From contig JAQGEQ010000062.1 of the NCBI GenBank assembly GCA_034620365.1, forward strand, positions 124,001-188,000: a stretch of 64,000 nt of DNA, in the 5' to 3' direction. Under the pieces are notes generated by a model. The model was not told the DNA's origin, did no database searches, and saw only the letters and a list, made by a program, of their open reading frames with translations. The number at the start of each line of letters is the position of its first letter. Position 1 is the first letter of the stretch. Shown piece after piece: positions 1-64,000 of the stretch. The DNA is from Pegea sp. RAD2-039. Lineage: Eukaryota; Chordata; Thaliacea; Salpida; Salpidae. Position numbers and translations under genes: made by a program.

Positions 1-1790
1 TTTCAAGATGGTTGTAGGTACTCAATTTGACAATTATTGTAAAAATAAATGAAACGAAGGAATGAAACTGGCATCGCTTTTTGTTAACATTAATTCAAAT
101 TACAAATAATTCATTCATCATAAAACTAATTTTAGTTAAACTTTTAACAGAGTAACTAAACCTTTCATCTTTGCTTTATTTTGCAGCTTATAAAAAGAAG
201 ATTGGATTTACTGGTCAGTTGTTGATAGAACCGAAACCAAAAGAACCAACCAGACACCAATACGATTATGGTAGAACCATTTGTTCAATTCTGTTATAAT
301 TAATATCTAGTTTATAAATGTTACTAAATTAATAAAACTTTTTTGTTTAGTTTTGCAAATAGATATCATCTTAAGACTAGATTAAGAAAATAGATTTAAC
401 TTGTGATGATGATGATGATGATGATGATGATATTTCAATTTTTATAAAATTATTAAAAAGATTTACCGAAAAAATTGAAAAACTTATTAAATCATCTTTC
501 TATATCTCAGTTTCAAATTTATTCAAATAAATTATAAATGCTAAAAGGACTTTTAACCAGCTCAAATATTATGATTAAAATTCCAAACCAGTAATTTTTT
601 CTTAGAAAACATCGACATCATGGTATATGGATTTGATATTTCTTAACTTTGAAAATTTTTATAAAAACTTAAAGAACTTTTTAGTTTTCCACTTTTATCG
701 AAACTTTTAATTTCATTGAATTAAACTGGATGCATAAAATAGAAACTATTTAGTTTTTATCGTTTATTTTAAGCTGGTTGCTAAAAAGTTTTAAAATACA
801 AAAATTGTTTTTCAGATGCTCAAACAGTTATTGCATTTCTAAAAACTTATGGATTAGATAAAGACTTTAAAGTAAAAACAAACTTTTGTTTGATTATATT
901 AAGAAATCTTAGATTTAATTGTTACAACAATTTAATAAAAATATTTTCAAATTATTGAAAGTTGAATAAACATTTTATGAATAGTTGAACATTGAACCAA
1001 ATCATACCACCTTAGCTGGTCACTCTCATGAACACGATGTAGTTATCTCATCAGCTTATAACATGCTAGGATCCATTGATTCTAATACAGGGTCACCTGA
1101 TCTTGGCTGGGACACAGATCAGTTTCCAATGTGTCTTAAAGATGCTACAATGATCATGAAAGTAAGCTCATTGATTCAAAAGTTTGATTTAAATAATTAT
1201 CTAAAGTTGTAGTTTGTAATCAGACTTTATATTGCAGGCAGTAATTGATCAAGGAGGTATTTCTCCTGGAGGTCTTAACTTCGATTGTAAAGTACGAAGA
1301 GAGTCTACTGATGTTGTTGATATGTTGATTTCTCATATTGGTGCCATGGACTGTTTTGCAAAAGCTCTTCGAATAGCAGCAAAGATAACCGCAGATGGAG
1401 TTATGGACAAGCTGAAGGAGGTTTTTATTGAATATTTTTTCAATTAATAATTTAGTTCGAGAATTTCTACCAAAAATATCTTATTTATTATGATTGATTG
1501 AAGATTAAAATATTTAGTAACTATAGTAACGATATCTTACAATATAATGATAAAATTATAAGTTAATCAACAGTCATCCTAGAAATCTTTTCAAGATAAT
1601 GACTTCAAATAACTCATTTATTTTACAGAATCGTTATTCGACCTTCAAATCAGATCTTGGATACAAAATCAAACAGGGAACTGCTTCCTTAGAAGATTGT
1701 GAATCTTACATCAGTAAAAATGGTAATCCAAAAGCTACATCAGGCCAACAAGAGAAATATGAAACAATTCTCAATCGATATCTTTTTTAA
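1..1790 (+). CDS. Xylose isomerase, C-terminal half (5' end outside window)
   Basis: Converts D-xylose to D-xylulose (and D-glucose to D-fructose) with two divalent metal ions. Exons are 1-17, 187-270, 816-871, 985-1161, 1238-1420 and 1629-1790. Phases join without a stop and give 225 residues, about half of the usual 430-470. The conserved blocks occur in family order: [45 protein letters not shown] and [11 protein letters not shown]. These contain the metal-binding Glu, His and Asp residues of the TIM-barrel active site. The end, [13 protein letters not shown], matches the usual C-terminus. A possible poly(A) signal AATAAA lies at 1872. The split-exon structure argues against bacterial contamination. 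The family is rare in animals. Identification is strong; enzyme activity is inferred from retained residues. Confidence 0.93.
404..431. repeat. (GAT)n microsatellite in xylose isomerase intron
   Basis: About nine tandem GAT triplets lie inside the second visible intron of the xylose isomerase gene. It is a simple length-variable tract with no coding role. Confidence 0.9.
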
Positions 1791-2685: not shown

Positions 2686-5600
2686 CTAGCGAGTGAAAAT
2701 AAGCACACTTGAGGTAGTGTGGTCTGCATCTCTTCCTAAAAAGTCTTCTGTAGCATTTGAAGAAGAAAATTCTGGAAACATTGAAAAAATTCAGGTTAGA
2801 AACTAGTAATCTAAACGCTTTTTCAACCTGGGAAATCTCCACAAGGAGTTGAAGTTGAATTATTTTCACTGAATCTATATTGACCAAGACAGAAACGAGA
2901 TATAAAACATGTTGACCTAAAAATTGTTGAAAAAATTATTTTTTGAAAATATTCTTTCAAAAGAAGAAATTGAAAATCAATTAAATTGTATTAAAATATC
3001 TTACAAACAATCATTTTATAAACAAAACTTACTTGATCCCTGTGCACAGGGCATTAACATTTCCATTTAAATCAGTTGGCCGGAATTGTAAATAACCTGG
3101 CTCAATGTAAGGAAGATCTGCTTGATTAAATCCTTCCATAATTGATCTATCATCACCTTTCAAGTAACTCACAGGAACTACAAGACTACTATTTTTTTTG
3201 GAACAAGACAAATCTATTTCAATCGTAAAAAGATAATTTATAATTTAATCAGAAATATGATTTTACCTAAGTACTGCAGGTTATTCGTCAAACTCATTGC
3301 TATTTCAACTATCTTATGAGCGATCCTATCCAAGACTGGCAAATCTAATTTGATGCCCATTGTTCTATGAATAAAATATCAGAATTTAAATTAAATAAAA
3401 TTCCTCTTTCACATCGAGAAAAATAAAAACTAAAAGTTCTCAAAAAAAATAATTTAAAGATTTAGACTGAAGATACTCACCTAACAATACAAAGCTTTTT
3501 ATATGGCAGTTTTGTTACTTACTCATAATATTGTGATATCATCATGTAACCTAATAAAACTCTTTCGGTGTTTCCATCAACCAAGACACTATTTGATAGC
3601 GAATCTGTTTGTGAACTCCATGATGATCTCCTAAAATTTCCAGTTCTTGAGTTCCAGAGCTGTTAATGTCTTTTATTTGTAATATTTTCAATAATTTTTT
3701 TCTTATTAATAACTAAACAGTAATATTTGATTTGTTGTTTACAGTTTAATATGTTTGCATCAATAAATAATTCAGTTTTAACATGAATAGTCAACAACAC
3801 AGAGAGTAAAGGTTAATCTGAATGTCAACACGATTTTATTTTCAACTTTTATATTCAGAAAATAGAAAAGAATCGAATTGCAACTATTTTTTTGCTTTAA
3901 TTTTTTCATTTTGGTTTTAAAACTGATTTATAAACTTAATTATTTGCTAACCGTTTCACTGCTACAGTAGAAATAAACTTCTGCAATTGAAGGGTCATCA
4001 ACATCATAGACATTATAAAGATCGTATTCACATGTGATGCCGTGCATAGTAATAGAATTATGATTAGAAGCATGAAGACCCTCTCCATCGGCTCCGGTTC
4101 CAGATTGAACCTAAAAGTTTAAACAAAATCATAATTAAGCAGTTTGATAACAAATATTCAAGATTTGATACTCGAAGTCCAAAGGAGTTATCAGTGTTTT
4201 GTTGCTCTCCAACCCACATCATAGTAACAAAAGGATGGATCATTTGACTATACAACTCAAAGTTTTGTTCAAAGTTTCTACACAATAAAAATTCATAGAG
4301 TTTTTTGGAATAAATTTAATCAATCAAAATATTGTTTGCTAAAAATGCTTAAAAGAAAAAAAAAGCTTCTATATTACCGAATATACTTTCCATATTCGAT
4401 TCTCGTCCAATCATTTCCATTATAAGTATACGAAACCTGAATAAGAACAATTTAGCCATCGATTTTGGTTTAACTGCTTTAATCTTAAAGTAAACAATTT
4501 CAACTTTTACAAACAATTTCATTTTGAAATGGTCACAAATCTTCTTTTAATACAAATGTAAACTTTAATCATCTTATATAAGATAAAACTTTAATTAGTA
4601 AAGACAAGTTTTTAACTTTTAATCTGATAAAAAGAATTCTTCAGCACCCTAGACCACCAACAGACTAAATGTTAGTTTACAAGAAATGTTTTTTCTTGTA
4701 TTAGTGTTGTAGACTGTTTTACTGGTCATGAAACTAAATCGATACAAATGAGTTCTTTATTAAAATATTGTATCGTACAGCGAACTCGAATCAGAGTTTT
4801 TGATTAGAAAGTAGAGTTTTTACATGAAGGTTATCAAGTATAAGGAATTTAAAAAATTTTAAAGGAAGTAATTAATTTTTAGAAAAGGTTTATACCTTAT
4901 TTCCAACATCATACATATCGTTTCCTCCGTCTACGATTTCAGTATAACCTATACTTTCTTTATCGTATGTAAATTCGTAAAAGTTTGGTATCAACGTTGC
5001 TATGCTTGTAATATTAGGAACTACGCTTTCAAACCAAGTTTGAAATGTTACAATATCCTCTGTTATCAAACAAAAGTCATAAGAATTCATCTAATGATCA
5101 ACTAAACTTCTAAATACCATCTAATGTTTGTGTAATATCCAAAGTATAATGTTTCTGATATAAAGTTTGTAAATTTCCCCCAAATTGAGAGAGAAAATTG
5201 TTGTCAGTGTAATATTGGAAAGTTGATGCACTGTCCCAATCTTGTGGAAGAGTGTTCGAGGGCACATGCCAAACCATCAAATTTTCAGCCTGATCAAAAA
5301 AATATGTAGGTCACGTGATTCAATTAAAAGATTCAATTATGAATAGATAAAGAAGTTGGTTACTTGGATGTCTGAGTAAGCAATACTCTTATAATCTCCT
5401 GATGTAGCTGCTTCAATGTGTCCGAATGTTAAAAAGTTTTCCCAAGATTTCATAGCTGAAATAAGACGTTTTATTTTAATGAAGAGAGTTAATAAATGGG
5501 CCACATACGAGGTCCATTTGGTGATTGGTTCCCGGACCAGTTGTCACCAGAAGTACATTTTCCATCTGGGTTATTCTCGTGGACACTTGCCACTAAGGTC

Positions 5601-6438
5601 CAACCACCACCAGCCTTTGTCAAGTCACAATACACCTGAAAGATTGAAGGTTAGGAATTATTTGTTTGAAGATTTGACGAATTTAAAAGTTTGTAAAAGA
5701 ACAAACCTGAGTAGTTTGTTTTGTTGCATCTGATCTGATTGTATAAATCCCAGATCTCGAAGAACTTTTTCTGATTTCTAAACATGATGACGGCAAACGA
5801 CGAGTAGGTTTACTTTCAACTATAAATATAAGTTTACGACTTGATTAGGTTGTATAGTTGAAATGTTAACATATTTCGATTGTTTTAAGAAGATTCAAGA
5901 ATTTATTTATCATTCTATTCTAATATAACAGTTGTTTGGTACAGTTGGGGCCTAACTTGGGGCTAGAAATCCGCGGTTTCCTTGAGATCCAGATGTACCT
6001 CGTTGACCCTTTATAAGAATATATGATTATAACCAATTTAAATAAAATAATTCATCGAGTTATTGAAATACATCTTACTGGTTTTCCTCGGCTTCCTGAA
6101 GGACCTGTCTCTCCAATGGGCCCTTTAATATTTCTGAAGAAATTGTTAGTCTGAGAAAATTAATATTTATTAATCTTTTGAATATTTAAATAATAAACTG
6201 ATATTAAAAATCAAAGTTCAAGTATAGAACAAAAAACCCATCATTTAAATTTAAAATGTTTTAAATAAATAAAAGATATTAGATACGAGTCTCTCACTGT
6301 TTGTGAAGGAGCTTGAAATGTAGATGAAAGAGTCTCATCAAAACACATACATCCACATTCACCTATATCTGTCTGGTTCCCAAACCCCAAAACATATTCA
6401 ATAGTCAGAAGCAGAATAAAAAGTTTAAACTTCATCAT
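2686..6438 (-). CDS. Secreted collagen-intelectin lectin with nested insert, proximal paralog
   Basis: A 615-residue secreted protein. Exons from 5' to 3' are 6298-6438, 6079-6150, 5957-6008, 5707-5819, 5509-5635, 5364-5455, 5118-5289, 4896-5059, 4378-4436, 4172-4277, 3952-4110, 3523-3659, 3267-3364, 3033-3213, 2828-2916 and 2686-2771. Order of parts: signal peptide (about 1-19), CGCMC, collagen-like Gly-X-Y triplets (about 56-85), then an intelectin-type fibrinogen-like domain. Intelectin hallmarks are SSCLEI, GGGWTLVASVHEN, FGHIEAATSGDYK, SDIQAENLMVWHVP and YQKHYTL. Residues 257-497 are an insert with IVDGGNDMYDVGN and MMWVGE. The intelectin fold then resumes (VPVSYLKG, YLQFRPTDLNG, CGDF) and ends in SSVLIFTR, like the intelectin C-terminus. 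Intelectins bind microbial glycans through calcium; the ligand His region here reads STCFISRFC, so binding is uncertain. Its tandem partner lies at 8474-11657. Confidence 0.88.
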
Positions 6439-8473
6439 CTAAATCTTATTTAAATTAGTAAAGCTTTTTTGGGAGTTTTAGTAATTTAAAAATACGATTA
6501 TTTTCTGACAAATGCGTAAAATACAACGAGTTCATTTTAAAACTCGCTTTGAAAACATTTTTATCATTAATTTTTGTCTAATTAATAAACTTTTTAACCT
6601 AAAATCTAGTTATCTGTAAGATATAAATTCTTATTTCAAAAAAAGTCTGGTATTTAAAAATATTCTGAAAGTTGAATATAAACTAGATCATAGAAAATTT
6701 AAAAGAAAAAATAGAAAAAAACAACTGTTTTTGCTGTTTTTAGCATACCTAGGAAGCCTAAACCATTTGTTTACACAAATGTCTCTGTTAATGGAAACAA
6801 ATATTGCATCAAATTTAACAGTAAATCATTAATAAAAATCTTATCAACAATTTAATCTTTTTTTTTTTCAAAATTTCATGAAATTTAGTGATTAGTCTAC
6901 AGTAGTGTACAAACAACAACTTATGTGTAGAGCTCAATAAGTAAAGAAATTGTCTTTCCATCTCTACTTTCAATTCCAACAATAGATTCAACTACATATA
7001 TTTATTCCAACATTTTTTCAGAAAGATTTATTATTGTGGAATTCTTTTTGAATATCCAGGAATTAATGATCATCAAACGGATGGTTATGGATCCAAAAAA
7101 TCATCTTAGGAATTTCTAAGTTGTTTTTCGCTAAATGTTGCTCCCTAATAAGTTAAGATCTGGAAATGATGAAAAGAGAACTCCTGCTAAAGTTGATTCT
7201 TTGATCTTTCTTCTGAAAAAGAAACAAAGTTTTGCTGAAAGGAGATTATTTGAAGCCCTATTCTGTTTAAATGTTGAAACTTTTTAGTTTATTTCTTCAT
7301 ATTTCTTCATATTTCTAATGATAGCTTAAATCTAACATAAGGATAAAATTTATTTTATTTCTAATAGAAACTTCTTAGCAGAATTATTTTATTAATTCAG
7401 ACTCAACAACTTTACTGATATTTAAGAATCGTTTAGGTGCCATGCTGCAGCTAACTTTTGTAATTCAGAAAGTTTACAAGCTCAAAATCTAACATTTGAT
7501 TAAAATATAATCTTTCATTTGTCTAAAAACTCGCTAAAAATTGATGATAGAAAATTGAAACTGTTCAAATTTCTGTTCATCACCTTTTAAAGACACTAAA
7601 ATAATATCTCAACTACTTCTAATTATTCTATATCAAAATAATTTGCATTTTTAATTATACTTGACTTAATAATTTTGCTTATTCATTTAATGACTTAATA
7701 CATGACTAAGGTTTACAGATATATTTTTTATTTTTCTAAAGTTGTTTTTAACGTTTTATATAAAAACATGTTTTTGAACCTTCTAATATTTTTTCATGAA
7801 CTATATCATAAAACTCTTAAAAAGCTTGATTAGTCCAATCGTTTAAAATAGTTGTATTGTGAATATTAGTTAAAAGAAAACATTTGTTTTTGTTTTATTA
7901 GTTTTGGGGTTAATTAATGTCAGAACACATCATTTATATTTAGTTTTTGTAGTTAATGATGCTAATCAGAAATTAGCAAAATGATATTTTATGATCAGAA
8001 GTAATATGATTTAAACATTACAACAAACAGCCGCGATAGATTCTACTCTGACTGTTTAATCTGTGCTTCTACTTGTAAAGAAACATAAGTTATTCTCTCT
8101 GGCTTAATTTACACTCAAACATTATAATAATTGCGATAAACTAAAATGAAAGCTTTAAAAAAGACTAACGTTAATAAACTGAAAAGTACAAACTTTTAAT
8201 AACATTAAATATTTAATTTTAATTTTGAACATATTTAAATATTTAATACTGATTCCTGACAAAATGTGTTTTGGCGATTATTCATAAACTTTTCAAAACC
8301 TAAATTTTAAATCAATTATTTTGTAAAAACTAACAAACCTGAAAACTGGTGAAATAGCAAGTTGAGAAAAATCAACAATTCAATTTATATTTGCATTTTC
8401 TTAACGAATAAACAACAATTTTGAAAATTAAACAAAAAATCAAATAATTATTGGAACATTTCAAAGAAGACAA
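6439..8473. other. AT-rich spacer between the two lectin genes
   Basis: About 2 kb separates the two lectin paralogs and should contain the promoter of the proximal copy and the 3' end of the distal copy. I found no exon, RNA gene or clear regulatory element. Confidence 0.4.
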
Positions 8474-11400
8474 TTATTTTGCAAATATCAAAATTGTAAA
8501 ATTTGAATTTAAAGCATAATGCTCTGAAGGTGAAAACATATTGCTAGAAACCGCTGCCTCTACTGCTCCTGATGGTAAGGCTGTAGCTGTCTCTGTAGTT
8601 GACCTAATTGGCATATGGAACCTTGGTGTGACTGTTGGAATAGGTCTAGGACCAGGTCCAGGTCTCGGACCAGGTCTCGGACCAGGTCTTGGACCAGGTC
8701 CAGGATCAGGTCTAGGTTCAGGTCTATTGATATTTGAAAAGTGTACGCTGTTGCTTGGACCAAATGGTGCTGGCTCTATAGAAAAAAGGTTTTTTATACT
8801 TCAGCTGAGACAAAATCACAAATATATTTTTAGAAAGAAATAAGGTATTAACTTGGGAAATCTCCACAATCAGTATAAAGTCTGTCATTTAAGCGATCTC
8901 CAACCATAGATAAACTTCCAAGACACACTCTCCCAGGATCACAAGTTACTCTAGTTGTTGGATGAAAGAAAATTGGAAAAGTTTTAACAATTGTTAGTCT
9001 ACCTGACTCCAGGACAAAATGCATAAGTATCACCATTGAAACTAGTTGGTCGGAATTGTATATAACCTGCTTCCACGTTTTTACGAGTAACTTCAGGTAG
9101 AGTTCCAAGCATGGATTGAGAGGTTCCTTTAAGGAAGTTTACTGGAACTGAAAGACTTTCACTTCCGTCTCCACAAGAAATATCTTTCAACAAAATTCGA
9201 AATGAAAATAAATCAAATCATTAATGAGAACATTACATCTTTTTGGTCTGATTGAATGCATAGCTGCCATTAATGTTCGTAAACTTCCTTCAACTTCATG
9301 AGGAGACATTCTGACACTATTACCTCTGTAACGTCAGTCATTAGCTTAACTTTCTCCTTTTACCATTTGTAGTACTAACGCAAAAAAGTTTGAAAGCAGC
9401 ATATATCCCATCATTACATTTTGTGGATTATGTGATGTATACACAGCATTTTGAAGATTATCTGTCGAAGAACTCCACAAGTCAGTTTCAAATGAGCCAG
9501 CAGTTGAATTCCACCTCTAAGAGACGAGCAAATAAATTCCTTATTGAATAAATAAACAAACTAACAGGACTGCTACAGCTGAAGTAAAGCTCTCCGATAG
9601 CAGGATCTGTTGTATCATATGTAGAGAAGAACTTGTAATTACAACGAAGGTCGCTGACATAAACAGAACCATCGAATGAATCATATTGACCCGTACCATC
9701 TGCTCCAGTATTTGATTGCACCTGTCAATCAAAATTTTAACAAATGAAAAAATCAATTTTTCTTATTTACTTTGATTCCAAAGTCAGCAACAGTTCCAGA
9801 TGGATTACCAATCCACATCAGAAAGAGAAAAGGCGTATCAACAAATGAAACTATTTCAGTTTCCGAACTGAAGTCTCTGCAATCATTAATTCATTTTACT
9901 GACACAATTATATTAGTAACTCCTTACAGGTATCGTTTTCCGTATGTGACTCGATTATAGTTGTCGCGACCGACAGAGTAATGTATCTACAAAAATTATG
10001 TCTACAGATAAGTTTAAAAATTGATCTTAAAATTTTTACAATGTTGCCTCCGTCATACATATCATCACCTCCATCGGTTATTGCCATTTCATCAACAGAG
10101 ACAGCATAAGTATAAAAATTTGGAATATCATTACGTATACTTTGAAGGACTGTATGTAGAGATGAAGCGGATATCCATTCATTTATTAAACTTGAAATTT
10201 CTGAAATCTCAAACTATCCAATTATTTTCAGAACAGAGATTTTGGCTTCATCACCTTTTGGTGTTTGTGGTTCCAAAGTGTAATATTTCTGATATAAAGT
10301 TTGTAAATTTCCCCCAAATCGAGAAAGAAAATTGTTGTCAGTGTAATATTGAAAAGTTGATGCACTGTCCCAATCTTGTGGAAGAGTGTTCGAGGGCACA
10401 TGCCAAACCATCAAATTTTCAGCCTGATCAAAAAATATGTAGGTCACGTGATTCAAGTAATCGAAGTCTTACCAAATATCCCCAATAAGCAATACTCTTA
10501 TAATCTCCTGATGTAGCTGCTTCAATGTGTCCGAACGTTAAAAAGTTTTCCCAAGATTTCATAGCTGAAATAAGATGTTTTATTTTAATGAAGAGAGTTA
10601 ATAAATGGGCCACATACGAGGTCCATTTGGTGATTGGTTCCCGGACCAGTTGTCACCAGAAGTACATTTTCCATCTGGGTTATTCTCGTGGACACTTGCC
10701 ACTAAGGTCCAACCACCACCAGCCTTTGTCAAGTCACAATACACCTGAAAGATTGAAATGTTTATTTTTTTGAAGAGATAAATTCCTATGAAGTGACTTC
10801 AGTTGCTTTGTTGGTTCCTTTCAGATGAAGAGTATAAACACCAGATTGGTTTGTTGTCTTTAATATTTCCTTACAAGATGCTGGAAACCTCTTTTTACCA
10901 CTTAAAAAATCTGAAATATGAAAAATATGAGATGTAAGTTGGTTGATTGAATTTGTGTTTACCTTTAGATGGTTGTCCTCTGGGACCAGTGACACCAGTA
11001 GGTCCAACTTCTCCCTGTTTAATAATTAAAGTTGACAAACTGTAATCTTTACTCGAGTGATTACTACAGAACTGTTTTATACGATGTAACGGTTATTTAT
11101 TATATTTTCTGAGGAGTATACGCGCTAATATCAAAGTATTTATTTGCTTCAAAGCTTCTGTGGGTAACATTTATCCACTAATAGATGGCCAAAAACTTTT
11201 TTGTATAATTAGAGCTTAGTTACTATTGATGGATTACTTTAAAAGTTAAGTTCTTATTTGAAGCTGTATTTTCAACACATGATGTATCAGTCAAGTACTC
11301 TCAAAATATAAAGTAAAAATACTAAGATCATACTCTTTCTCCAAAATTTCCTTGAAGTCCTTGTGAACCACGGATTCCTTTGATGTTTTGAAAGAACTCA

Positions 11401-11657
11401 TTTTTCTGTAATTTGGTATAAAATTTTCAGAAATATTCAAATTAAAACTTTTTTCATATAACTAAAAAATTGATAAAAATCTTTAAACAGAACACAGAAC
11501 ACTTTACCGATTTTTTAGGAGCAAGAAACTGGGAAGAGAGTGTTTGATCCTGATCATTTCGACACATACATCCACATTTGCTAACATCCAAACTATTACT
11601 AACTACTAATTCAGTTGTAATTAAAAGAAGAATTATAATTTTCAAATCATTCTTCAT
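8474..11657 (-). CDS. Secreted collagen-intelectin lectin with nested insert, distal paralog with Pro/Gly/Arg tail
   Basis: A 687-residue paralog of the gene at 2686-6438, with 16 exons: 11508-11657, 11334-11405, 10963-11014, 10798-10910, 10618-10744, 10473-10564, 10255-10423, 10040-10200, 9928-9986, 9771-9876, 9566-9721, 9380-9516, 9237-9325, 9003-9183, 8853-8950 and 8474-8775. Most exons have exactly the same length as in the partner, which confirms the model, including an unusual GTCACT donor after 10798. Parts: signal peptide, CGCMC, collagen-like GIRGSQGLQGNFGERGEVG stretch, SCKEI, GGGWTLVASVHEN, an insert at about 259-494 with ITDGGDDMYDGGN and LMWIGNPSG, then VPVNFLKG, YIQFRPTSFNG and DCGDF. 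Residues 588-687 form a tail of PGPRPGPR repeats that replaces the final intelectin strand (VLIFTR) of the partner. Calcium and glycan ligand residues of mammalian intelectin are not clearly kept (CDPGRVC). Confidence 0.87.
8640..8725 (-). repeat. Short tandem repeats encoding Pro-Gly-Pro-Arg tail
   Basis: Imperfect 6-12 bp units in the last exon of the distal lectin encode alternating Pro, Gly and Arg. The other two frames on both strands are also open because the units are multiples of three, which yields spurious ORFs. Confidence 0.75.
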
Positions 11658-26284: not shown

Positions 26285-29200
26285 ATGACAACTAATATTG
26301 ACTCTGTTGAAAATGAAGTAAATAAACCAATTCCAGATGCTACTGAAACAAAAAAGGTAAAAAAATTTGTTGTTCTCAAAATATTTAATTAAATTGATAT
26401 TCTAGAATGAGATGTCATTGCTTTCCCCACCATCTTTAAAGATTGTGTCTCCTGTTGGAATAAGACCTTCAATTTCACGTCAGTTTTCTGAACAAGTAAC
26501 AATACGTCGTCGAGATAGCATCAAATGCATCAAACAACGTAATTACAACTTGTTATGATTTAAATACTTGTAATGTTTATGTAAGTAAATGATGACATCA
26601 AATTGTTGATGAATAGAACGAAGTAGTTGTACTTCCTTTATCGAGACTGAATCAAATCTTCTTCGGATGAAGAACAGAAACCTGAACAATTCAGATCCAT
26701 CATTAAATTCATCATTTGTAAGTTTTCAATTAAATCACTTGCATCCACAAGACATCATTTCTTCTTTAGAGAGATCTAATCTTGAACAAACAGGGAACCA
26801 ATAACCAACCACCGATGTAAGTTCTTATTTAGCTTTGACCCATTTGACCTTTAACCCCTTTCAGGGCAACGTCATCTGCAATAGCTCGAAGCAGCAGCTA
26901 CTTAGCTTACCCTCAAGCACCATGTAGACCTTTATCACCTGCAATCAGTATGTGACGTCATCAGTGACGTCATCATAACCTATTTGTTGCAGATCAAACT
27001 GTAGATGGAAACCAGAGTCCCAACACTTTATCACCAGCTAGTGGAACGCCCCAGTTTATGTTTGGAGCAGCTCCGTCACACACTGTTGTCACGCCAACCG
27101 TCAATCGATCTTTTATTCACGCGCTTGATACGTCGAGACGTTGGTCTCTTGCTTCTCTGCCCTCTAGTGGTTACGGCACCAACACTCCATCATCAGTTTT
27201 ATCTTCATCCAACTCTTCATCTCAGGTTAGCTTCATCTGCTTCTCTATCGCGTAGTGTGACGTCATAGAGCGCGTTGACAACAACGCGTGTCGTTTGAGT
27301 AGTAGCGGAAACTTTCATTTTCATTTATTGTTTCAAATATTCGGTCGTCACGCTTCAGTGACTTCTGGAAACTTTTTTTTTCATCTTCAAATTTTAATGA
27401 AATCAAATTTGTATCTGAAAAAGAAGTTTTCTATTTTTTCACTTCTTATGTAACAACTGAATATTTGAATAATAAAAGTTTAAACAAATAAATCTCGATT
27501 GTAAACTCATAAAAACAAACTTTCTTCTTCATCTTGTTTGATTGATTTGAAATTTACTTTCAGGATCATCTTCATCAACTCCTAGGAGGTCTTCACCAGA
27601 CTTTCAACGACTTCTCAATCTCCAACAACAAGTACAGTTCCACCGAAAACATTCATGAAGGTTTCATCAACTTTATTTATTATTCATAAATTTGCCAAAC
27701 AAAAAACTTATTGATTTGAGACAGTAAAATGACATTTGAGATATTTGTACACAGGTGTCCGTAACATCAAAATCCGACCTAGATCGCGAAGTTTAAGTCC
27801 AACACGTCACGCTGCTAGTTACCAATCAGAAGTGATGTTGTTGAATCATGTGTATCATGAAAGATTCCCGAAAGCAATTACTCAGATGGAAGATCAATTA
27901 GAGGTGAAGTCACTTCAATCAATTCTATTTGTAATAAAAGCGCGCGTGTTCAAACGCTTTTTTATTTCACATCACCTTCACCTCTACCTCATTTACATAA
28001 TCCAACATCTTCATTAAAGTCCTGATCTTTCAACTACATCTTCTACTTCAAATTTTTTTAAACTTTTTTGGGGTCAACTTTAACTTCTCGACCAACAACA
28101 CCACGACAAATATTTAGTGGATTTAGGTGCTTAAGAGTCGCGTGCTTCTAGTAGTTACTTGGATGCTCACAAAAACTAAATCCAGTAATCTTCAGAGTCT
28201 ACTCCGATCTAAGGAAGACACAACTCTCATTTCGTGTCCTTATCCGGCTTGGAATTTTGTTCAAAAACAAACAGTGGAGATGGTTAAAGAATGTTTGAAG
28301 AAATCTCAAGATAAGACACTCAGTGTTAATTACTTTTACGAAATACTTTCAAGTTTATCGAATTTAATGACTGAGGTACTTTTTCCTCCCTATTAATCGC
28401 CCCATTTTCAACTTGTGCCCTTGTCTAGGCGACCGAGAAGTCTGGAGGCTCAACTTATTCACCTGTAGTGAAGTTGGTGAAGAAATTGATGATGATAATC
28501 GCCAGACCGTCTCGATTACTTGAGTGTTTGGTGAGTTGTTGATCCCTACATCCAATCATGATCCCTATATCCAACCATGATCCCTGCATCCAACCATGAT
28601 CCCTACATCCAATCATGATCCCTGCATCCAACCATGATCCCTGCATCCAATCATGATCCCTGCATCCAATCATGATCCCTGCATCCACTCATGATCCCTG
28701 CATCCAATCATGATCCCTGCATTCAATCATGATCCCTGCATCCAACCATGATCCCTGCATCCAATCATGATCCCTGCATCCAACCATGATCCCTGCATCC
28801 AATCATGATCCCTGCATCCAATCATGATCCCTGCATCCAACCATGATCCCTGCATCCACTTATGATCCCTGCATCCAGGAGTTTTCCCCGGAGGACTACT
28901 ACAAAGTGATTAGTGACGCGGAGGATGAAGCAAAGAAGAAGAGCTTCATCTCGAACGAGATCCCGCACTACATCCTCACCAAACTCGGGATCACAAACTC
29001 CGGGGACTCTGAGAACTTCCGATCTGAACCCGAACCAACCGCTTCACAACTCGAAGTAAGTAGCGAGTGAGACGCGAGCTGATGACGTCATCATCACGTG
29101 ACAGATGAGAGCGAAGGAGGATGCTAGTGAGGTGACTGCAGATGACTTCCAAACCATCAAATTGATCAGCAACGGTGCTTACGGGTAAGTTGATGACGTC

Positions 29201-32200
29201 ATCGACACGCGATTGTTCACGTCGTCTTGTCATCAGCGCTGTACATCTTGTACGTCACATCGAGACACGTCAACGCTACGCACTCAAGCGTATCAACAAA
29301 CAAAATCTAGGGTTACGTAATCAAATCGAACAAGTGAGTCTTTGGGATTCAATTTTGGAAGATTGAAAACGCGCGATGTTTTGATGTAGGTGTTCTGTGA
29401 ACGCGATATCCTCACATTCGTCGAGAATCCATTTGTTGTGTCCTTGTATTGCTCTTTTCAAACCCAACATCATCTCTGTATGGTTCTCGAATACGTTGAA
29501 GGTGGTGATGTCGCTTCTCTTCTTAAAGTAAATTTATCGCGCTTATGACGTCATTACCGCTAACCCTGGGCCACATTTAGAACTTGGGAATTCTGCCCGG
29601 CTACCTGGCCCAACAGTACTTTGCTGAAACTGTCCTGGCTCTCGAATATCTTCACTTTTACGGAATTATTCATCGCGACTTGAAGCCCGACAAGTGAGTT
29701 GATGACGTCACTTCTACCGCTGATGACGTCATCGACATTTACAGTTTACTCATCACTGCCCTGGGCCACATCAAGCTGACCGATTTTGGTCTGTCCAAAG
29801 TTGGTTTGATGTCGAGGACAACTAATTTGTACGAGACCTATTTGGACCGGTCCCAGCAGTTTGTTGATGGACAGGTTAATGGGACACCTCAATATATTGC
29901 TCCAGAGGTCATTGTCAACTCTGGATATGGGGCACCTGTAGACTGGTGGTCAGCGGGCATTTGTCTCTACGAGTTTCTGGTCGGGGTAGTTCCGTTTTTC
30001 GGGGACACGCCCGATGAGCTGTTTGGACAAGTGATGACCGGTAAGTGACGTGAAGTGTTTCGGTGGTTACGTCATCGATGACGTCATCATAGAGGATCTA
30101 GTGTGGCCGGATGCAGATGATGAAGGTAGTGTTCCTCCTATTGCTATAGATATCGTGACGAAATTACTCAACCGTGACCCGGTGGCACGATTAGGTAGTC
30201 ATGGAGCTATTGAGGTAAGTGTGGACCACTGACCACTAATTGTGGACCACTAACCACTGTCCTACAGGTCAAGAACCATCCTTATTTTACTTCACTTCAT
30301 TGGGACCAATTGTTGAGACAAAAAGCTGAATTTGTTCCTCAACTTGATAATGAAGAAGATACCAGCTACTTCGACAGTAAGTCCACCTGTCCCCCAACCA
30401 CCTGCCCCCAACCACCTGTCCCCCAACCACCTGTCCCCCAACCACCTATCCCCCGACCACCTGTCCCCCAACCACTTGTCCCCCAACCACTTGTCCCCCA
30501 TCTACCTGTCCTCCGACCACCTGTCCCCCAACCACCTGTCCCCCAACCACTTGTCCCCCAACCACCTGTCCCCCAACCACCTGTCCCCCAACCACCTATC
30601 CCCCGACCACCTGTCCCCCGATGTCCCCCACCTGTCCCCCAACCACTTGTCCCCCATCTACCTGTCCACCAACCATTTGTCTCCCATCTACTTGTCCACC
30701 ATCTACTTGTCCACCATCTACTTGTCCACCATCTACTTGTCCACCATCTACCTGTCCACCATCTACTTGTCCACCAACCACCTGTCCACCATCTACTTGT
30801 CCACCAACCACCTGTCCACCATCTACTTGTCCACCAACCACCTGTCCACCAACCACTTGTCCACCAACCACCTGTCCCCCAACCACCTGTCCCCCAACCA
30901 CTTGTCCACCCTCTACTTGTCCACCATCTACTTGTCCACCATCTACTTGTCCACCAACCACTTGTCCCCCAACCACCTGTCCCCCAACCACCTGTCCCCC
31001 AACCACCTGTCCACCAACCACCTCTCCCCCAACCACCTGTCCCCCAACCACCTGTCCCCCATCTACCTGTCCACCAACCACTTGTCCCCCAACCACTTGT
31101 CCACCCTCTACTTGTCCCCCATCTACCTGTCCACCAACCATTTGTCTCCCATCTACTTGTCCACTGACCAACTTTTCTGCAGCGCGAAGTGACCGCTACA
31201 ACCACAACGATTTTGATACGTCATCTCTAACTACGTCACTCGACAACTCGACTCTGAACGACGCGCTTCGCGGTTTCACTTCCTGCAATCACAAGTACTC
31301 ACAAGTAAGTGATGACGTCATCACTTCCGCTATGATAACGTCACAATTACGTCATAGAGTCTTCAATCGTGCCGGAAGTTGAAGCTGACTTCGAAATTGT
31401 AAGTTGAAAATCCAGAAGTTGATCTTTTACTGATCTTCATCTTCAGATCAACATCGGAGACTTGCTCTTCATCTGATCCTGTACAACTTCCTTCTTTCTC
31501 ATCGGATCCTTTCATCTACAAACCGCCAGATGACGCTATCAAATGTGACGTCATCAGTGACGCTATCAAATGTGACGTCATCAGTGACGCACGCCGAACT
31601 CGATCAGGAGGAAGTTCCTTGACATCAGAAGATTTTGAACCTCCTCTTACGTCAACACCGCGATCGAAGCCACGTCATCGGAAGCAACCGGAAGCTGGTG
31701 AACTTGGTGGCATCCGCAAATCTCGAAGTATGTCCGCAGACAGTCCCATACTCCATGAAGATCCGGTCCCGAAACCACCAGTTCCTACTATGACGTCATC
31801 AATCGCGCCACGGAAGCCAGCTGAACACGCGATTCTTCGACGTCTGTCGTCACACTCATCAACTGGATCTCTACATCATCTCACAACTGTTCAAGCTGCG
31901 CGACGTCACTCACATCTTCTTCACGATACTAGCGAGTATGACGTCACGATGACGTCATCACTGAAACCAGCAGTGGTAGGTGATTTGTGTGTGACGTAAT
32001 CAGTCAGTGACGTCATCGTATCGCGACAGGATTCACATGAACTACTTCATCGTCGATTACACGCGACACATTCGGCGTCACGTGGTGAATCGCGACGTTC
32101 GCGATCATTCAAACGGAACATCATCAAATCATCGAGTGCTTCATCGTTACAAGTGAGATCGGAAATAATTTGAAATTTGGCCGGATTTTAAAGTCGAAAT

Positions 32201-60237: not shown

Positions 60238-63200
60238 TTAAAACTTTTCTTCATCTTCTTCATTATCATCTTTTCGGACTTTCGATTCATTTACAACTTC
60301 AACATTTTGATTATAATCACTTTCTAAGTTATCCTCATCTTTAGCAGAAGATCTTCTTCTGAAGTTGTCTTCATCTTTAACAGAAGCTCTTCTTTCTAAG
60401 TTATCCTCATCTTTAGCAGAAGATCTTCTTCTGAAGTTGTCTTCATCTTTAACAGAAGCCCTTCTTTCTAAGTTATCCTCATCTTTAGCAGAAGATCTTC
60501 TTCTGAAGTTGTCTTCATCTTTAACAGAAGCTCTTCTTTCTAAGTTATCCTCATCTTTAGCAGAAGATCTTCTTCTGAAGTTGTCTTCATCTTTAACAGA
60601 AGCTCTTCTTTCTAAGTTATCCTCATCTTTAGCAGAAGATCTTCTTCTGAAGTTGTCTTCATCTTTAACAGAAGATCTTCTTTCTAAGTTATCCTCATCT
60701 TTAGCAGAAGATCTTCTTCTGAAGTTGTCTTCATCTTTAGCAGAAGATCTTCTTCTGAAGTTATCTTCATCCTTAGCAGAAGATCTTCTTTCTAAGTTAT
60801 CCTCATCTTTAACAGAAGCTCTTCTTTCTAAGTTATCTTCATCCTTAGCAGAAGATCTTCTTCTGAAGTTGTCTTCATCTTTAACAGAAGCTCTTCTTTC
60901 TAAGTTATCCTCATCTTTAGCAGAAGATCTTCTTCTGAAGTTGTCCTCATCTTTAGCAGAAGATCTTCTTCTGAAGTTATCTTCATCCTTAGCAGAAGAT
61001 CTTCTTTCTAAGTTATCCTCATCTTTAACAGAAGCTCTTCTTTCTAAGTTATCTTCATCCTTAGCAGAAGATCTTCTTCTGAAGTTGTCTTCATCTTTAA
61101 CAGAAGCTCTTCTTTCTAAGTTATCCTCATCTTTAGCAGAAGATCTTCTTCTGAAGTTATCTTCATCTTTAGCAGAAGATCTTCTTCTGAAGTTGTCTTC
61201 ATCTTTAGCAGAAGCTCTTCTTTCTAAGTTATCTTCATCCTTAGCAGAAGATCTTCTTCTGAAGTTGCCTTCATCTTTAATAGAAGCTCTTCTTTCTAAG
61301 TTATCTTCATCCTTAGCAGAAGATCTTCTTCTGAAGTTATCCTCATCTTTAACAGAAGCTCTTCTTTCTAAGTTATCTTCATCCTTAGCAGAAGATCTTC
61401 TTCTGAAGTTATCCTCATCTTTAGCAGAAGCTCTTCTTTCAAAGTTATCCTCATCTTTAGCAGAAGATCTTCTTTCAAAGTTATCTTCATCCTTAGCAGA
61501 AGATCTTCTTCTGAAGTTATCTACATCTTTAGCAGAAGATCTTCTTCTGAAGTTATCTTCATCTTTAACAGAAGATCTTCTTTTTAAGTTATCCTCATCT
61601 TTAGCAGAAGATCTTCTTTCAAAGTTGTCTTCATCTTTAGCAGAAGATCTTCTTTCAAAGTTATCTTCATCTTTAGCAGAAGATCTTCTTCTGAAGTTAT
61701 CTACATCTTTAGCAGAAGATCTTCTTCTAAAGTTATCTACATCTTTAGCAGAAGATCTTCTTCGGAAGTTATCTTCATCTTTAGCAGAAGATCTTCTTCT
61801 AAAGTTATCTACATCTTTAGTTGAAGACTTTCTTCTGAAGTTATCTTCATCTTTAACAGAAGCTCTTCTTTCTAAGTTATCCTCATCTTTAGCAGAAGAT
61901 CTTCTTCTGAAGTTATCTTCATCCTTAGCAGAAGATCTTCTTTCTAAGTTATCCTCATCTTTAGCAGAAGATCTTCTATCAAAGTTATCCTCATCTTTAG
62001 CAGAAGATCTTCTTCTGAAGTTATCTTCATCTTTAACAGAAGATCTTCTTTCAAAGTTATCCTCATCTTTAACAGAAGACTTTCTTCTGAAGTTATCCTC
62101 ATCTTTAGCAGAAGATCTTCTTCTGAAGTTATCTTCATCTTTAACAGAAGATCTTCTTTCAAAGTTATCCTCATCTTTAACAGAAGACTTTCTTCTGAAG
62201 TTATCCTCATCTTTAGCAGAAGATCTTCTTCTGAAGTTATCTTCATCTTTAACAGAAGATCTTCTTTCAAAGTTATCTTCATCTTTAGCAGAAGATCTTC
62301 TTCTGAAGTTATCTTCATCCTTAGCAGAAGATCTTTTTTCTAAGTTATCCTCATCTTTAGCAGAAGATCTTCTATCAAAGTTATCCTCATCTTTAGCAGA
62401 AGATCTTCTATCAAAGTTATCCTCATCTTTAACAGAAGATCTTCTTCTGAAGTTATCTTCATCCTTAGCAGAAGATCTTCTTTCAAAGTTATCCTCATCT
62501 TTGACAGAAGACTTTCTTCTGAAGTTATCCTCATCTTTAGCAGAAGATCTTCTTTCAAAGTTATCTTCATCTTTAGCAGAAGATCTTCTTCTGAAGTTGT
62601 CCTCATCTTTAGCAGAAGATCTTCTTCTGAAGTTGTCCTCATCTTTAGCAGAAGATCTTCTTCTGAAGTTATCTTCATCCTTAGCAGAAGATCTTCTTCT
62701 GAAGTCATCTTCATCCTTAGCAGAAGATCTTCTTTCAAAGTTATCCTCATCTTTAGCAGAAGATCTTCTTCTGAAGTTGTCCTCATCTTTAGCAGAAGAT
62801 CTTCTTCTGAAGTTATCTTCATCCTTAGCAGAAGATCTTCTTTCAAAGTTATCTTCATCTTTAGCAGAAGATCTTCTTCTGAAGTCATCTTCATCCTTAG
62901 CAGAAGATCTTCTTCTGAAGTCATCTTCATCATTTACAGAAGATCTTCTTTCAAAATCATCTTCATCTTTAATGGAAGATCTTCTACTGAAGTTATCTTC
63001 ATCTTTAAAGTAATAACTATTTTCAGAATTGTTAACATCATTAAAAGTTGAGGCGGTTGAACGAGTTGCCCCTGAACTCGAATCTGTCTCAATTCTGTGT
63101 TCTTTGAGACTAATACTGGATTGAGAACTTGAGTGGCAGTTTTCCAAACTTTTTTTGTACTTTTTGCTCGTGGTTGAAAGTGAAGAGCTAGATGCAGAAA

Positions 63201-63252
63201 GCCCTGAACTACTGCTATCTTTTGTATCTTCACCATAATCTCGTTCATAAAG
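60238..63252 (-). CDS. Last exon of a giant 12-residue-repeat protein (5' exons not seen)
   Basis: An open frame of 1004 codons plus stop, entered through a splice acceptor (TTATTCAG) at 63253. Residues 1-82 are Ser and Thr-rich. Residues 83-976 are about 74.5 tandem copies of KDEDNF(R/E)RRSS(A/V). The end is acidic (KVRKDDNEEDEEKF). Each unit couples an acidic patch to RRxS, the consensus for PKA and other basophilic kinases, so the exon could present over 70 phosphorylation sites on a disordered polyampholyte. Units alternate FRRRSSA and LERRASV forms toward the C-terminus, giving 24-residue higher-order repeats. No family is recognised. Upstream exons probably lie beyond the window or unrecognised within 63253-64000. 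The first Met inside this exon is not needed if the acceptor is used. Confidence 0.8.
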   Translation of the reverse strand, partial: LYERDYGEDTKDSSSSGLSASSSSLSTTSKKYKKSLENCHSSSQSSISLKEHRIETDSSSGATRSTASTFNDVNNSENSYYFKDEDNFSRRSSIKDEDDFERRSSVNDEDDFRRRSSAKDEDDFRRRSSAKDEDNFERRSSAKDEDNFRRRSSAKDEDNFRRRSSAKDEDNFERRSSAKDEDDFRRRSSAKDEDNFRRRSSAKDEDNFRRRSSAKDEDNFRRRSSAKDEDNFERRSSAKDEDNFRRKSSVKDEDNFERRSSAKDEDNFRRRSSVKDEDNFDRRSSAKDEDNFDRRSSAKDEDNLEKRSSAKDEDNFRRRSSAKDEDNFERRSSVKDEDNFRRRSSAKDEDNFRRKSSVKDEDNFERRSSVKDEDNFRRRSSAKDEDNFRRKSSVKDEDNFERRSSVKDEDNFRRRSSAKDEDNFDRRSSAKDEDNLERRSSAKDEDNFRRRSSAKDEDNLERRASVKDEDNFRRKSSTKDVDNFRRRSSAKDEDNFRRRSSAKDVDNFRRRSSAKDVDNFRRRSSAKDEDNFERRSSAKDEDNFERRSSAKDEDNLKRRSSVKDEDNFRRRSSAKDVDNFRRRSSAKDEDNFERRSSAKDEDNFERRASAKDEDNFRRRSSAKDEDNLERRASVKDEDNFRRRSSAKDEDNLERRASIKDEGNFRRRSSAKDEDNLERRASAKDEDNFRRRSSAKDEDNFRRRSSAKDEDNLERRASVKDEDNFRRRSSAKDEDNLERRASVKDEDNLERRSSAKDEDNFRRRSSAKDEDNFRRRSSAKDEDNLERRASVKDEDNFRRRSSAKDEDNLERRASVKDEDNLERRSSAKDEDNFRRRSSAKDEDNFRRRSSAKDEDNLERRSSVKDEDNFRRRSSAKDEDNLERRASVKDEDNFRRRSSAKDEDNLERRASVKDEDNFRRRSSAKDEDNLERRASVKDEDNFRRRSSAKDEDNLERRASVKDEDNFRRRSSAKDEDNLESDYNQNVEVVNESKVRKDDNEEDEEKF
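60325..63005. repeat. 36-bp coding minisatellite, about 74 copies
   Basis: Tandem 36-bp units on the minus strand encode the 12-residue repeat. Most contain the 12-bp palindrome AGAAGATCTTCT and many also contain CTTCTGAAG. Because the unit is a multiple of three and lacks antisense stops, the plus strand is open for 882 codons. Confidence 0.97.
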
Positions 63253-64000
63253 CTGAATAAATAATTTAAAATGTCAAATCATTTCAATTATTAGTGACCT
63301 AATCACAATTGCTTTATATTTTAAATTTAAATATTTAATCTAAAAATTAACCAAGGTTTCTGATAATACTTATTAAAAAATTCTTTTGAATAATATTGTT
63401 TTAGTCTGTTTAATTTGGAGTTTTACTTTTCAAATTTTCTATTTAAGAAATTCAGTTTCAGAAAATGCAAGACTTCGAAATTATGCTTTGTTAGAAACTA
63501 ATTGTTTACATTTTTAAGCTTCTAGAAAATCTTCCTTGAATTCGCAAGGAATAGAAATTTCTAAATTACAAATTATTAAACAAAAAATTGACACCGTTAC
63601 AATTACTTAACAAGGTTAGTTAATCTACTAGACATGGTGGTCTCTTGATATTTCTTTGTGTATCATCACTTCACCAAACAATAGTCTTATAAAATTTTTA
63701 AATTAAAACTTTGATCAAATTCATAAAAACAATCTTTTTTAAAAGAACTAAAGTAAAAACGCAGTAGGTTATGTAAACCAAATATTTAAAAAATCAAACT
63801 TAGTTTACAAATAAAAAAATTTTGATAAATTAGTAATTAGTTTTTAATGATTATTTCTATGAAGTAATTGAAAGTTTTTTGAAACTTTTTTTTAACTGGC
63901 TACTAAACTTTATGATTTACCAATCTGTGTGAAATTTGAAAATCTCAAAAATTTTCAAGCAAACATATTTGAATTGAAAACACAAAACCGTTCAGGCAAA
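63253..64000. other. Upstream intron of the repeat-protein gene, or flank
   Basis: AT-rich sequence upstream of the repeat exon. It starts with the intron that ends in TTATTCAG. I could not place a convincing upstream exon before the window ends. Confidence 0.4.

What the first reader, a model, noticed from the sequence alone, without database searches (positions are those of the whole stretch)
2686..11657. Intelectin domain split by a nested ~240-residue domain
Both lectins start a standard intelectin-type fibrinogen-like domain up to YQK(H/Y)YTL. Six exons (236 or 241 residues) with DGGxDMYDxGN, a (F)LMW(I/V)G-type strand and a WSSxTD block then follow, and the intelectin domain resumes at VPV(N/S)(Y/F)LKG...QFRPT...CGDF. 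In known intelectins these two halves are nearly contiguous. The insert boundaries coincide with introns, as expected for exon shuffling into a loop of a folded lectin. The combination with a CxCxC motif and a collagen-like stem suggests an oligomeric, possibly bifunctional pattern-recognition lectin that I have not seen described.
Basis: partly seen in the sequence, partly recalled or inferred. Interest (0 to 1): 0.8.

Follow-up and report, generated by a model that had tools for sequence, protein, structure and literature searches.

The report
Intelectin split by bacterial-type domain
A small animal's immune-type sugar-binding protein has been opened in the middle and carries a whole extra domain of a kind found in bacterial and phage-like proteins, while its original sugar-binding site has decayed, so the foreign-looking insert may be the new recognition head.

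The parts
2686..6438 (-). gene g1, 16 exons, 615 aa: signal peptide (by eye), CGCMC, 10 Gly-X-Y triplets, split intelectin with nested domain
5957..6438 (-). g1 exons 1-3: signal peptide, CGCMC, collagen-like stem
   Evidence: (PF01391 22.1 bits, under its 27.2 cut-off)
5118..5819 (-). g1 exons 4-7: first intelectin half; keeps structural calcium motif HENNPDGKCTSGD
   Evidence: (PF00147)
3267..5059 (-). g1 exons 8-13: nested 241-residue domain, flanked by phase 1 introns
2686..3213 (-). g1 exons 14-16: second intelectin half to ...SSVLIFTR stop; ligand-site residues not kept
8474..11657 (-). gene g2, 16 exons, 687 aa: same architecture
10963..11657 (-). g2 exons 1-3: signal peptide, CGCMC, collagen-like stem
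   Evidence: (PF01391 20.2 bits, under cut-off)
10255..10910 (-). g2 exons 4-7: first intelectin half
9237..10200 (-). g2 exons 8-13: nested 236-residue domain, flanked by phase 1 introns
8474..9183 (-). g2 exons 14-16: second intelectin half, with a Pro-rich PGPRPGPGPRP stretch between CGDF and the last strand FTILIFAK
5118..5635 (-). stretch of g1 (exons 5-7) nearly identical to g2 10255-10744: likely gene conversion
   Evidence: exon 5 127/127, intron 5 52/53, exon 6 83/91, exon 7 158/169; the other 13 exons 47-78%

Best explanation
These are secreted, probably oligomeric (N-terminal Cys cluster plus short collagen-like stem), intelectin-scaffold proteins of a small AT-rich animal, in which the loop between the two intelectin halves (about hITLN1 residues 191-198) was replaced, most simply once, through a symmetric 1-1 set of exons, by a complete ~240-residue domain of an unnamed family shared with large bacterial proteins and viral-contig proteins. 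The intelectin part still looks able to fold around its structural calcium but its ligand-binding calcium site has degenerated; the nested domain is displayed on the oligomer as the likely binding head, probably for a surface glycan. Shown: gene structure, one clade of inserts, family membership of the insert, loss of the ligand-site residues. Inferred: oligomer, glycan as ligand, transfer of the binding function to the insert, defence or adhesion role.
Against: No transcripts, no binding data. The PDB fold matches are near the background of 7-8 stated by the tool. With both conserved motifs masked the bacteria-only HMM gives only 4-11 bits. Ligand-site mapping uses an alignment that is loose near E274, W288 and Y297; g1 has a Glu two columns from E274. 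The spliced animal protein itself was not folded. No evidence that the bacterial or viral-contig domain binds sugar.
Confidence: 0.55

Rival explanations
1. Two working sites: the intelectin site binds one glycan and the nested domain another, giving a bifunctional recognition lectin.
For: Both halves of the intelectin scaffold are kept with a Cys after the insert, CGDF and the structural calcium motif; hItln2 and mItln2 show that the aromatic box can change and galactose still be bound (PMC12800186).
Against: Those lectins are described as keeping the calcium-coordinating residues; here E244 is N, N, S, D, E262 is S, G, S, S and H263 is R, R, S, S in g1, g2, C26, C101.
Confidence: 0.12
2. The insert is structural or a protein-interaction module (spacer, oligomer contact, anchoring in mucus, cuticle or egg coat) and not a glycan-binding head.
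For: Bacterial relatives sit as modules among Ig-like and repeat domains in large proteins and the family occurs in tandem arrays on C247; I know of no binding datum for any member.
Against: Strong conservation of acidic/Gly blocks IxDGGxDM(Y/F)D, GADxxG and DPS(I/V) across bacteria, a viral contig and the animal looks like a site rather than a spacer (inference).
Confidence: 0.22
3. Exons 8-13 are an alternatively spliced cassette: the animal makes both a plain intelectin and the insert form.
For: Skipping exons 8-13 keeps the frame in g1 and g2 with no internal stop (375 and 452 positions counting the terminal stop); flanking phases are 1-1 in all four genes.
Against: The ligand site is degenerate in all four genes, so a plain form would not be a canonical intelectin; no transcript data.
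Confidence: 0.1
4. Artefact: two half genes and an unrelated gene between them, or a decayed pseudogene.
For: Models are computed, not confirmed by RNA; a few donors are weak (GTCACT in g2 intron 4).
Against: Four loci on three contigs share exon order, flanking phases and open spliced frames although the inserts are at best 35-45% identical.
Confidence: 0.02

Closest known systems
Intelectins (X-type lectins; hITLN1 4WMQ/4WMY, XEEL 4WMO/4WN0, lamprey serum lectin 7E1E)
   Same: Both halves of the domain align, with GGGWTLVASVHEN, the HENxxxGxCTxGD structural calcium motif, QFR...C, CGDF and the last strand.
   Different: A ~240-residue domain nested between the halves; a collagen-like stem; ligand-site calcium residues not kept.
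Ficolins
   Same: N-terminal cysteines, short collagen-like run, C-terminal fibrinogen-related domain (ficolin layout recalled; here).
   Different: The fibrinogen-related domain is of intelectin type and is split by the insert; the PF01391 match is below its curated cut-off.
Placozoan intelectins
   Same: Invertebrate intelectin-like secreted proteins in gene clusters (PMC6321704, passages).
   Different: Mostly around 250 aa and said to lack collagen repeats; no nested domain in the passages seen.
Unnamed 'IxDGGxDM(Y/F)D' domain of bacterial and viral-contig proteins
   Same: Profile match to the insert over 204 columns.
   Different: In the bacterial and viral-contig loci examined it lies in uninterrupted frames, and neither intelectin half occurs in those 120 loci.

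Membership tests
Intelectin (X-type lectin) | Fibrinogen-related N-terminal half with VASVHEN...KCT.GD | tested here: met
   PF00147 30 and 30.4 bits over the 22-bit cut-off; PDB intelectins 4e-45
Intelectin (X-type lectin) | Intelectin-specific C-terminal half (QFR...ALC...CGDF...last strand) | tested here: met
   second collinear stretch, i-Evalue 3.8e-4 to 4wmq; alignment
Intelectin (X-type lectin) | Structural calcium motif HENXXXGXCTXGD | tested here: met
   g1 and g2 exact; C26 and C101 with T to S or N (motif from PMC9682848)
Intelectin (X-type lectin) | Ligand-site calcium residues (hITLN1 E244, E262, H263, E274) and aromatic box W288/Y297 | tested here: not met
   not kept in any of four genes (W288, Y297, E274 from PMC12800186; E244/E262/H263 inferred from lamprey residues in PMC9682848 and from recall); columns at E274 and beyond are loosely aligned
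Intelectin (X-type lectin) | Calcium-dependent glycan binding | not testable with these tools
   no assay
Ficolin-like (collagen stem plus FReD) | N-terminal Cys and collagen-like Gly-X-Y run | tested here: met
   CxCxC and 10, 10, 11, 11 triplets in the g1, g2, C26, C101 models; Pfam collagen 22.1 and 20.2 bits for g1 and g2, below the 27.2 cut-off
Ficolin-like (collagen stem plus FReD) | FReD of ficolin rather than intelectin type | tested here: not met
   best PDB matches are intelectins at 4e-45, then a lamprey lectin at 7e-42; angiopoietin-2 and fibrinogen at 1e-4 or weaker
IxDGGxDM(Y/F)D domain family (unnamed) | Three conserved blocks IxDGGxDM(Y/F)D..N, GADxxG, D(P/A)-(I/V) in order over ~200 residues | tested here: met
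Beta-sandwich (galactose-mutarotase-like, name recalled) domains of GH65/94/95/116 enzymes | Same fold at a Z clearly above background | tested here: inconclusive

The most novel reading that the evidence does not exclude
An animal lineage took a bacterial or phage surface/adhesion module, carried it through its own exons, and grafted it once into the loop of an intelectin; the intelectin's own ligand site then decayed and the microbial-type module became the recognition head of a collagen-stemmed immune lectin. The module family itself is undescribed in the libraries searched and may be a new class of binding domain across bacteria, phages and animals.
Probability: 0.3. Interest if true: 0.85.

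Novelty: new variant of a known kind. Interest (0 to 1): 0.64.

Why it matters
Known intelectins bind glycans through one calcium site. Here that site is gone in sequence and a complete foreign-type domain sits in the fold, which makes domain nesting, and not only point change, a possible way for innate lectins to change target. The insert also defines a large unnamed domain family in bacteria and environmental viral contigs, for which these animal lectins would give a secreted test case.

Tried and rejected
Insert as an orphan lineage-specific sequence: rejected, it has bacterial and viral-contig relatives. Insert as a known domain: no Pfam family at E up to 1 for the g1 and g2 inserts; for 46 bacterial members only weak or single rows (HYR 1.6e-4 in 1 of 46, all others 0.012 or weaker in 1-4 of 46; I take them for flanking modules or chance but did not check positions). 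NCBIfam was run on bacterial members only: three rows, 1 of 46 each, best 0.019. PHROGs: none for the C101 insert and the viral-contig domain, two rows at 0.042 and 0.072 for a C247 copy, none for the viral-contig protein; the g1 and g2 inserts were not run there. PDB by sequence: g2 insert best 0.17, bacterial profile best 0.054. Nested architecture in bacteria or viral contigs: no intelectin half in frames of 60 or more residues of 120 loci. Domain in cultured phages and plasmids: no match with one viral-contig and one bacterial query against phages and one bacterial query against plasmids. Species: size (105.7 Mb), 27.9% G+C in the window and short introns (30 of g1/g2, median 57) resemble monogonont rotifers (Brachionus plicatilis 106.9 Mb, 26.75% G+C, PMC11954553), but the rotifer spliced leader (PMC3795323) was not found with 0 or 3 mismatches, so the organism is left unnamed. 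Direction of transfer between bacteria and animal: not testable, no eukaryotic collection is held. Homology control against my reading: with motif 1 masked 14-25 bits, with both motifs masked 4-11 bits, so the single-profile evidence leans on the motifs; the profile-profile result is the stronger one. Fold kinship rests on the VIA second look alone; the Foldseek libraries pdb and viral could not be run, so no absence there is claimed.

Printed literature: searches with intelectin+rotifer, intelectin+invertebrate+domain architecture, intelectin/insertion/oikopleura, DGGNDMYD, intelectin/exocyclic/His263, intelectin/collagen-like/invertebrate/fibrinogen-related, rotifer/fibrinogen-related/lectin/innate immun. 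I saw listings only: 2 of 2, 7 of 9, 15 of 202, 0 of 0, 10 of 17, 12 of 35 and 10 of 409 papers. None of the titles or abstract starts shown names this architecture. Passages seen by word search, no paper read whole: PMC8878817 (rotifer lectins; 'intelectin' 0 times), PMC6321704, PMC11452194, PMC12800186, PMC9682848, PMC3795323, PMC11954553. The library holds open-licence papers only.
Full report
OBSERVATION. The window lies in a 105.7 Mb, 387-contig genome with introns; window G+C is 27.9%. On the minus strand two tandem genes were modelled exon by exon. g1 runs 6438-2686 and g2 11657-8474, 16 exons each, all GT-AG, 615 and 687 residues. Order: signal peptide (by eye), CGCMC, 10 Gly-X-Y triplets, first intelectin half (exons 4-7), insert (exons 8-13, 723 and 708 nt = 241 and 236 codons), second intelectin half (exons 14-16). 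Introns before exon 8 and before exon 14 are phase 1 in both genes. The human intelectin-1 chain 4wmq aligns in two collinear pieces, chain 28-183 and 192-305, to either side of the insert, so the insert replaces a loop of about eight residues (hITLN1 about 191-198; the offset of 7 is inferred from known residue numbers). The Cys just after the insert and CGDF are kept in all four genes.

HOW MANY. Searches of the whole genome with exons 5-7 of g1 and with both halves of the C101 gene return the same four loci: two in the window, C26 (about 627.7-624.8 kb, minus) and C101 (about 104.4-107.3 kb, plus). One search also lists C17 (E 0.012) and C12 (E 0.28); both fall in loci that the Pfam fibrinogen search finds too (which shows further fibrinogen-domain matches on C8, C121, C250, C39, C80 and C21), and I take these as ordinary FReDs without having modelled them. 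A spliced aligner written here modelled C26 and C101: both carry stem, first half, insert and second half, with phase 1 introns on both sides of the insert. The C26 model lacks a start and has a doubtful stretch at its beginning, and C101's exon 12/13 boundary differs from the others. So 4 of 4 intelectin loci found have the insert and none was found without it. The exon-wise search can miss diverged copies.

WHAT THE INSERT IS. No Pfam family at E up to 1 for the g1 and g2 inserts, no PHROGs row for the C101 insert, no PDB sequence below E 0.17 for the g2 insert. A viral-contig scan with the g2 insert gave one protein at 30% identity. An alignment of that protein with ten animal copies (A1) used on genome contigs gave 148 pattern stretches, 123 of them relatives, 80 fetched: Bacteroidota, Verrucomicrobiota, Planctomycetota, Acidobacteriota, cyanobacteria (Microseira, Okeania), Chloroflexota and others. 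The same alignment gave 40 relatives among 151 stretches in viral contigs. Because the scan patterns came from conserved motifs, the motif itself is not independent evidence; the rest of the domain is.

HOMOLOGY TESTS. A bacteria-only HMM (88 of 89 motif-centred segments) gives the inserts of g1, g2, C26 and C101 59.4, 52.7, 50.3 and 47.8 bits; 43 of 1000 shuffled inserts were reported, the best at 8.6; intelectin halves give nothing. With the DGGxDMYDxGN block masked: 25.3, 20.0, 22.4, 14.2 bits; with GADxxG masked too: 10.8, 4.0, 11.2, 8.3, close to noise. Profile to profile, 46 bacterial loci of the 80 fetched (A2) against nine animal copies (A3) give probability 99.3, E 7e-21, 204 columns from the first helix to the last; with my own match-column rule 145 columns, and the four nested inserts alone 99.0 over 203 columns; a reversed profile gives 0.3 and intelectin halves 0.1. 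One A3 row is a chimera of two neighbouring C247 copies; without it the probability is 99.2 over 143 columns. The strongest agreement is in the first 150 columns; the C-terminal part is weaker.

CONTEXT IN BACTERIA AND VIRAL CONTIGS. The 80 bacterial frames are 462 to 4051 residues, many cut by contig ends. Of six scanned with NCBIfam three carry a T9SS sorting tail over its cut-off; of six others scanned with Pfam two do (a third is below cut-off), with neighbours such as subtilase, matrixin, HYR, FG-GAP, thrombospondin type 3, Ig-like and SdrD_B domains. The other 68 were not scanned. Viral-contig copies sit in open frames of about 300-1300 residues; the first has the repeat style of a tail or fibre protein and lies near a family-B polymerase-like frame (my reading; PHROGs gave no name). 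No copy was found in cultured phage or plasmid records with the queries tried. Neither intelectin half occurs in the 120 bacterial and viral loci.

EVOLUTION. In a tree of 50 rows (9 animal copies; 27 of 80 bacterial, every third by score; 14 of 40 viral, by score, identical ones and L171 left out) the four nested inserts are one side of a branch (99/95) and all nine animal copies are one side (100/100); long branches were flagged. Without the chimeric row and the longest viral row the values are 98/92 and 100/99. Where the animal copies join the bacteria differs between the two trees and is left open. Most simply the insertion happened once, before the four genes split. The domain also occurs in two tandem clusters on contig C247 (about 35-47 kb and 376-389 kb): 12 matches to the first exon's part of the profile, 11 of them followed by later exons of the domain; three clear ones (about 381.5, 46.7 and 386.7 kb) show the exon phases 0,2,0,0,2 of exons 8-12 in g1, g2 and C26. 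No intelectin match lies on C247. These exons were therefore available as a module. Whether the animal got the domain from bacteria or phages, or the reverse, cannot be judged here.

FUNCTION. The structural calcium motif of intelectins, HENXXXGXCTXGD (PMC9682848, passages), is kept: HENNPDGKCTSGD in g1 and g2, HENNIKGKCSEGD in C26, HENNINGRCNVGD in C101. The ligand site is not: hITLN1 E244 is N, N, S, D; E262 is S, G, S, S; H263 is R, R, S, S; E274 is N, D, S, S (g1, g2, C26, C101, columns near E274 loose, g1 has a Glu two columns before). W288, Y297 and E274 are named as site residues in PMC12800186; E244, E262 and H263 are inferred from the lamprey residues Glu262, Glu281 and His282 and from recall of the human structure. 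The intelectin part therefore looks like a kept scaffold with a lost ligand site. Together with the Cys cluster and the collagen-like run, the simplest working model is an oligomer that displays the nested domain; that the domain binds glycans is inferred from its company, its fold hint and its conserved acidic blocks, and is not shown.

CAVEATS. No transcripts. Skipping exons 8-13 is in frame in g1 and g2, so a plain form is possible. Organism unnamed: size and composition fit monogonont rotifers (PMC11954553) but the rotifer spliced leader was not found. The rotifer lectin survey PMC8878817 does not use the word intelectin and describes the N-terminal regions of rotifer FReDs as lacking detectable domains (passages).

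Noticed in passing
window 5118-5635 versus 10255-10744 (minus): Exons 5-7 of the two genes are 91-100% identical (exon 5 127/127, intron 5 52/53), the other 13 exons 47-78%: a likely recent gene-conversion tract confined to the first intelectin half.
   Followed up: yes
window 985-1790 (+): 3' end of a xylose isomerase gene with introns (PDB xylose isomerases at 1e-40), uncommon in animals as far as I recall.
   Followed up: partly
window 60238-63273 (-): 1011-residue open frame made largely of about 37 copies of a 72-bp repeat (KDEDNFRRRSSA-type 12-mers).
   Followed up: no
window 28540-28877 and 30383-31162: GC-rich island with a 19-bp repeat (17.8 copies) and a 15-bp repeat (51.7 copies) open in several frames.
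   Followed up: no
window 8474-8775 (-): g2 alone of the four genes has a Pro-rich PGPRPGPGPRP stretch between CGDF and the last strand, in the region that holds W288/Y297 in human intelectin-1.
   Followed up: partly
G000 C247 about 35-47 kb and 376-389 kb (L036-L039): Two tandem arrays of the insert-type domain without intelectin; gaps of 0.3-0.4 kb between some copies suggest multi-domain genes.
   Followed up: partly
L132-L171 (viral contigs): The unnamed domain recurs in 40 environmental viral-contig loci but gave no match in cultured phage records with two queries; a candidate unannotated fibre module.
   Followed up: partly
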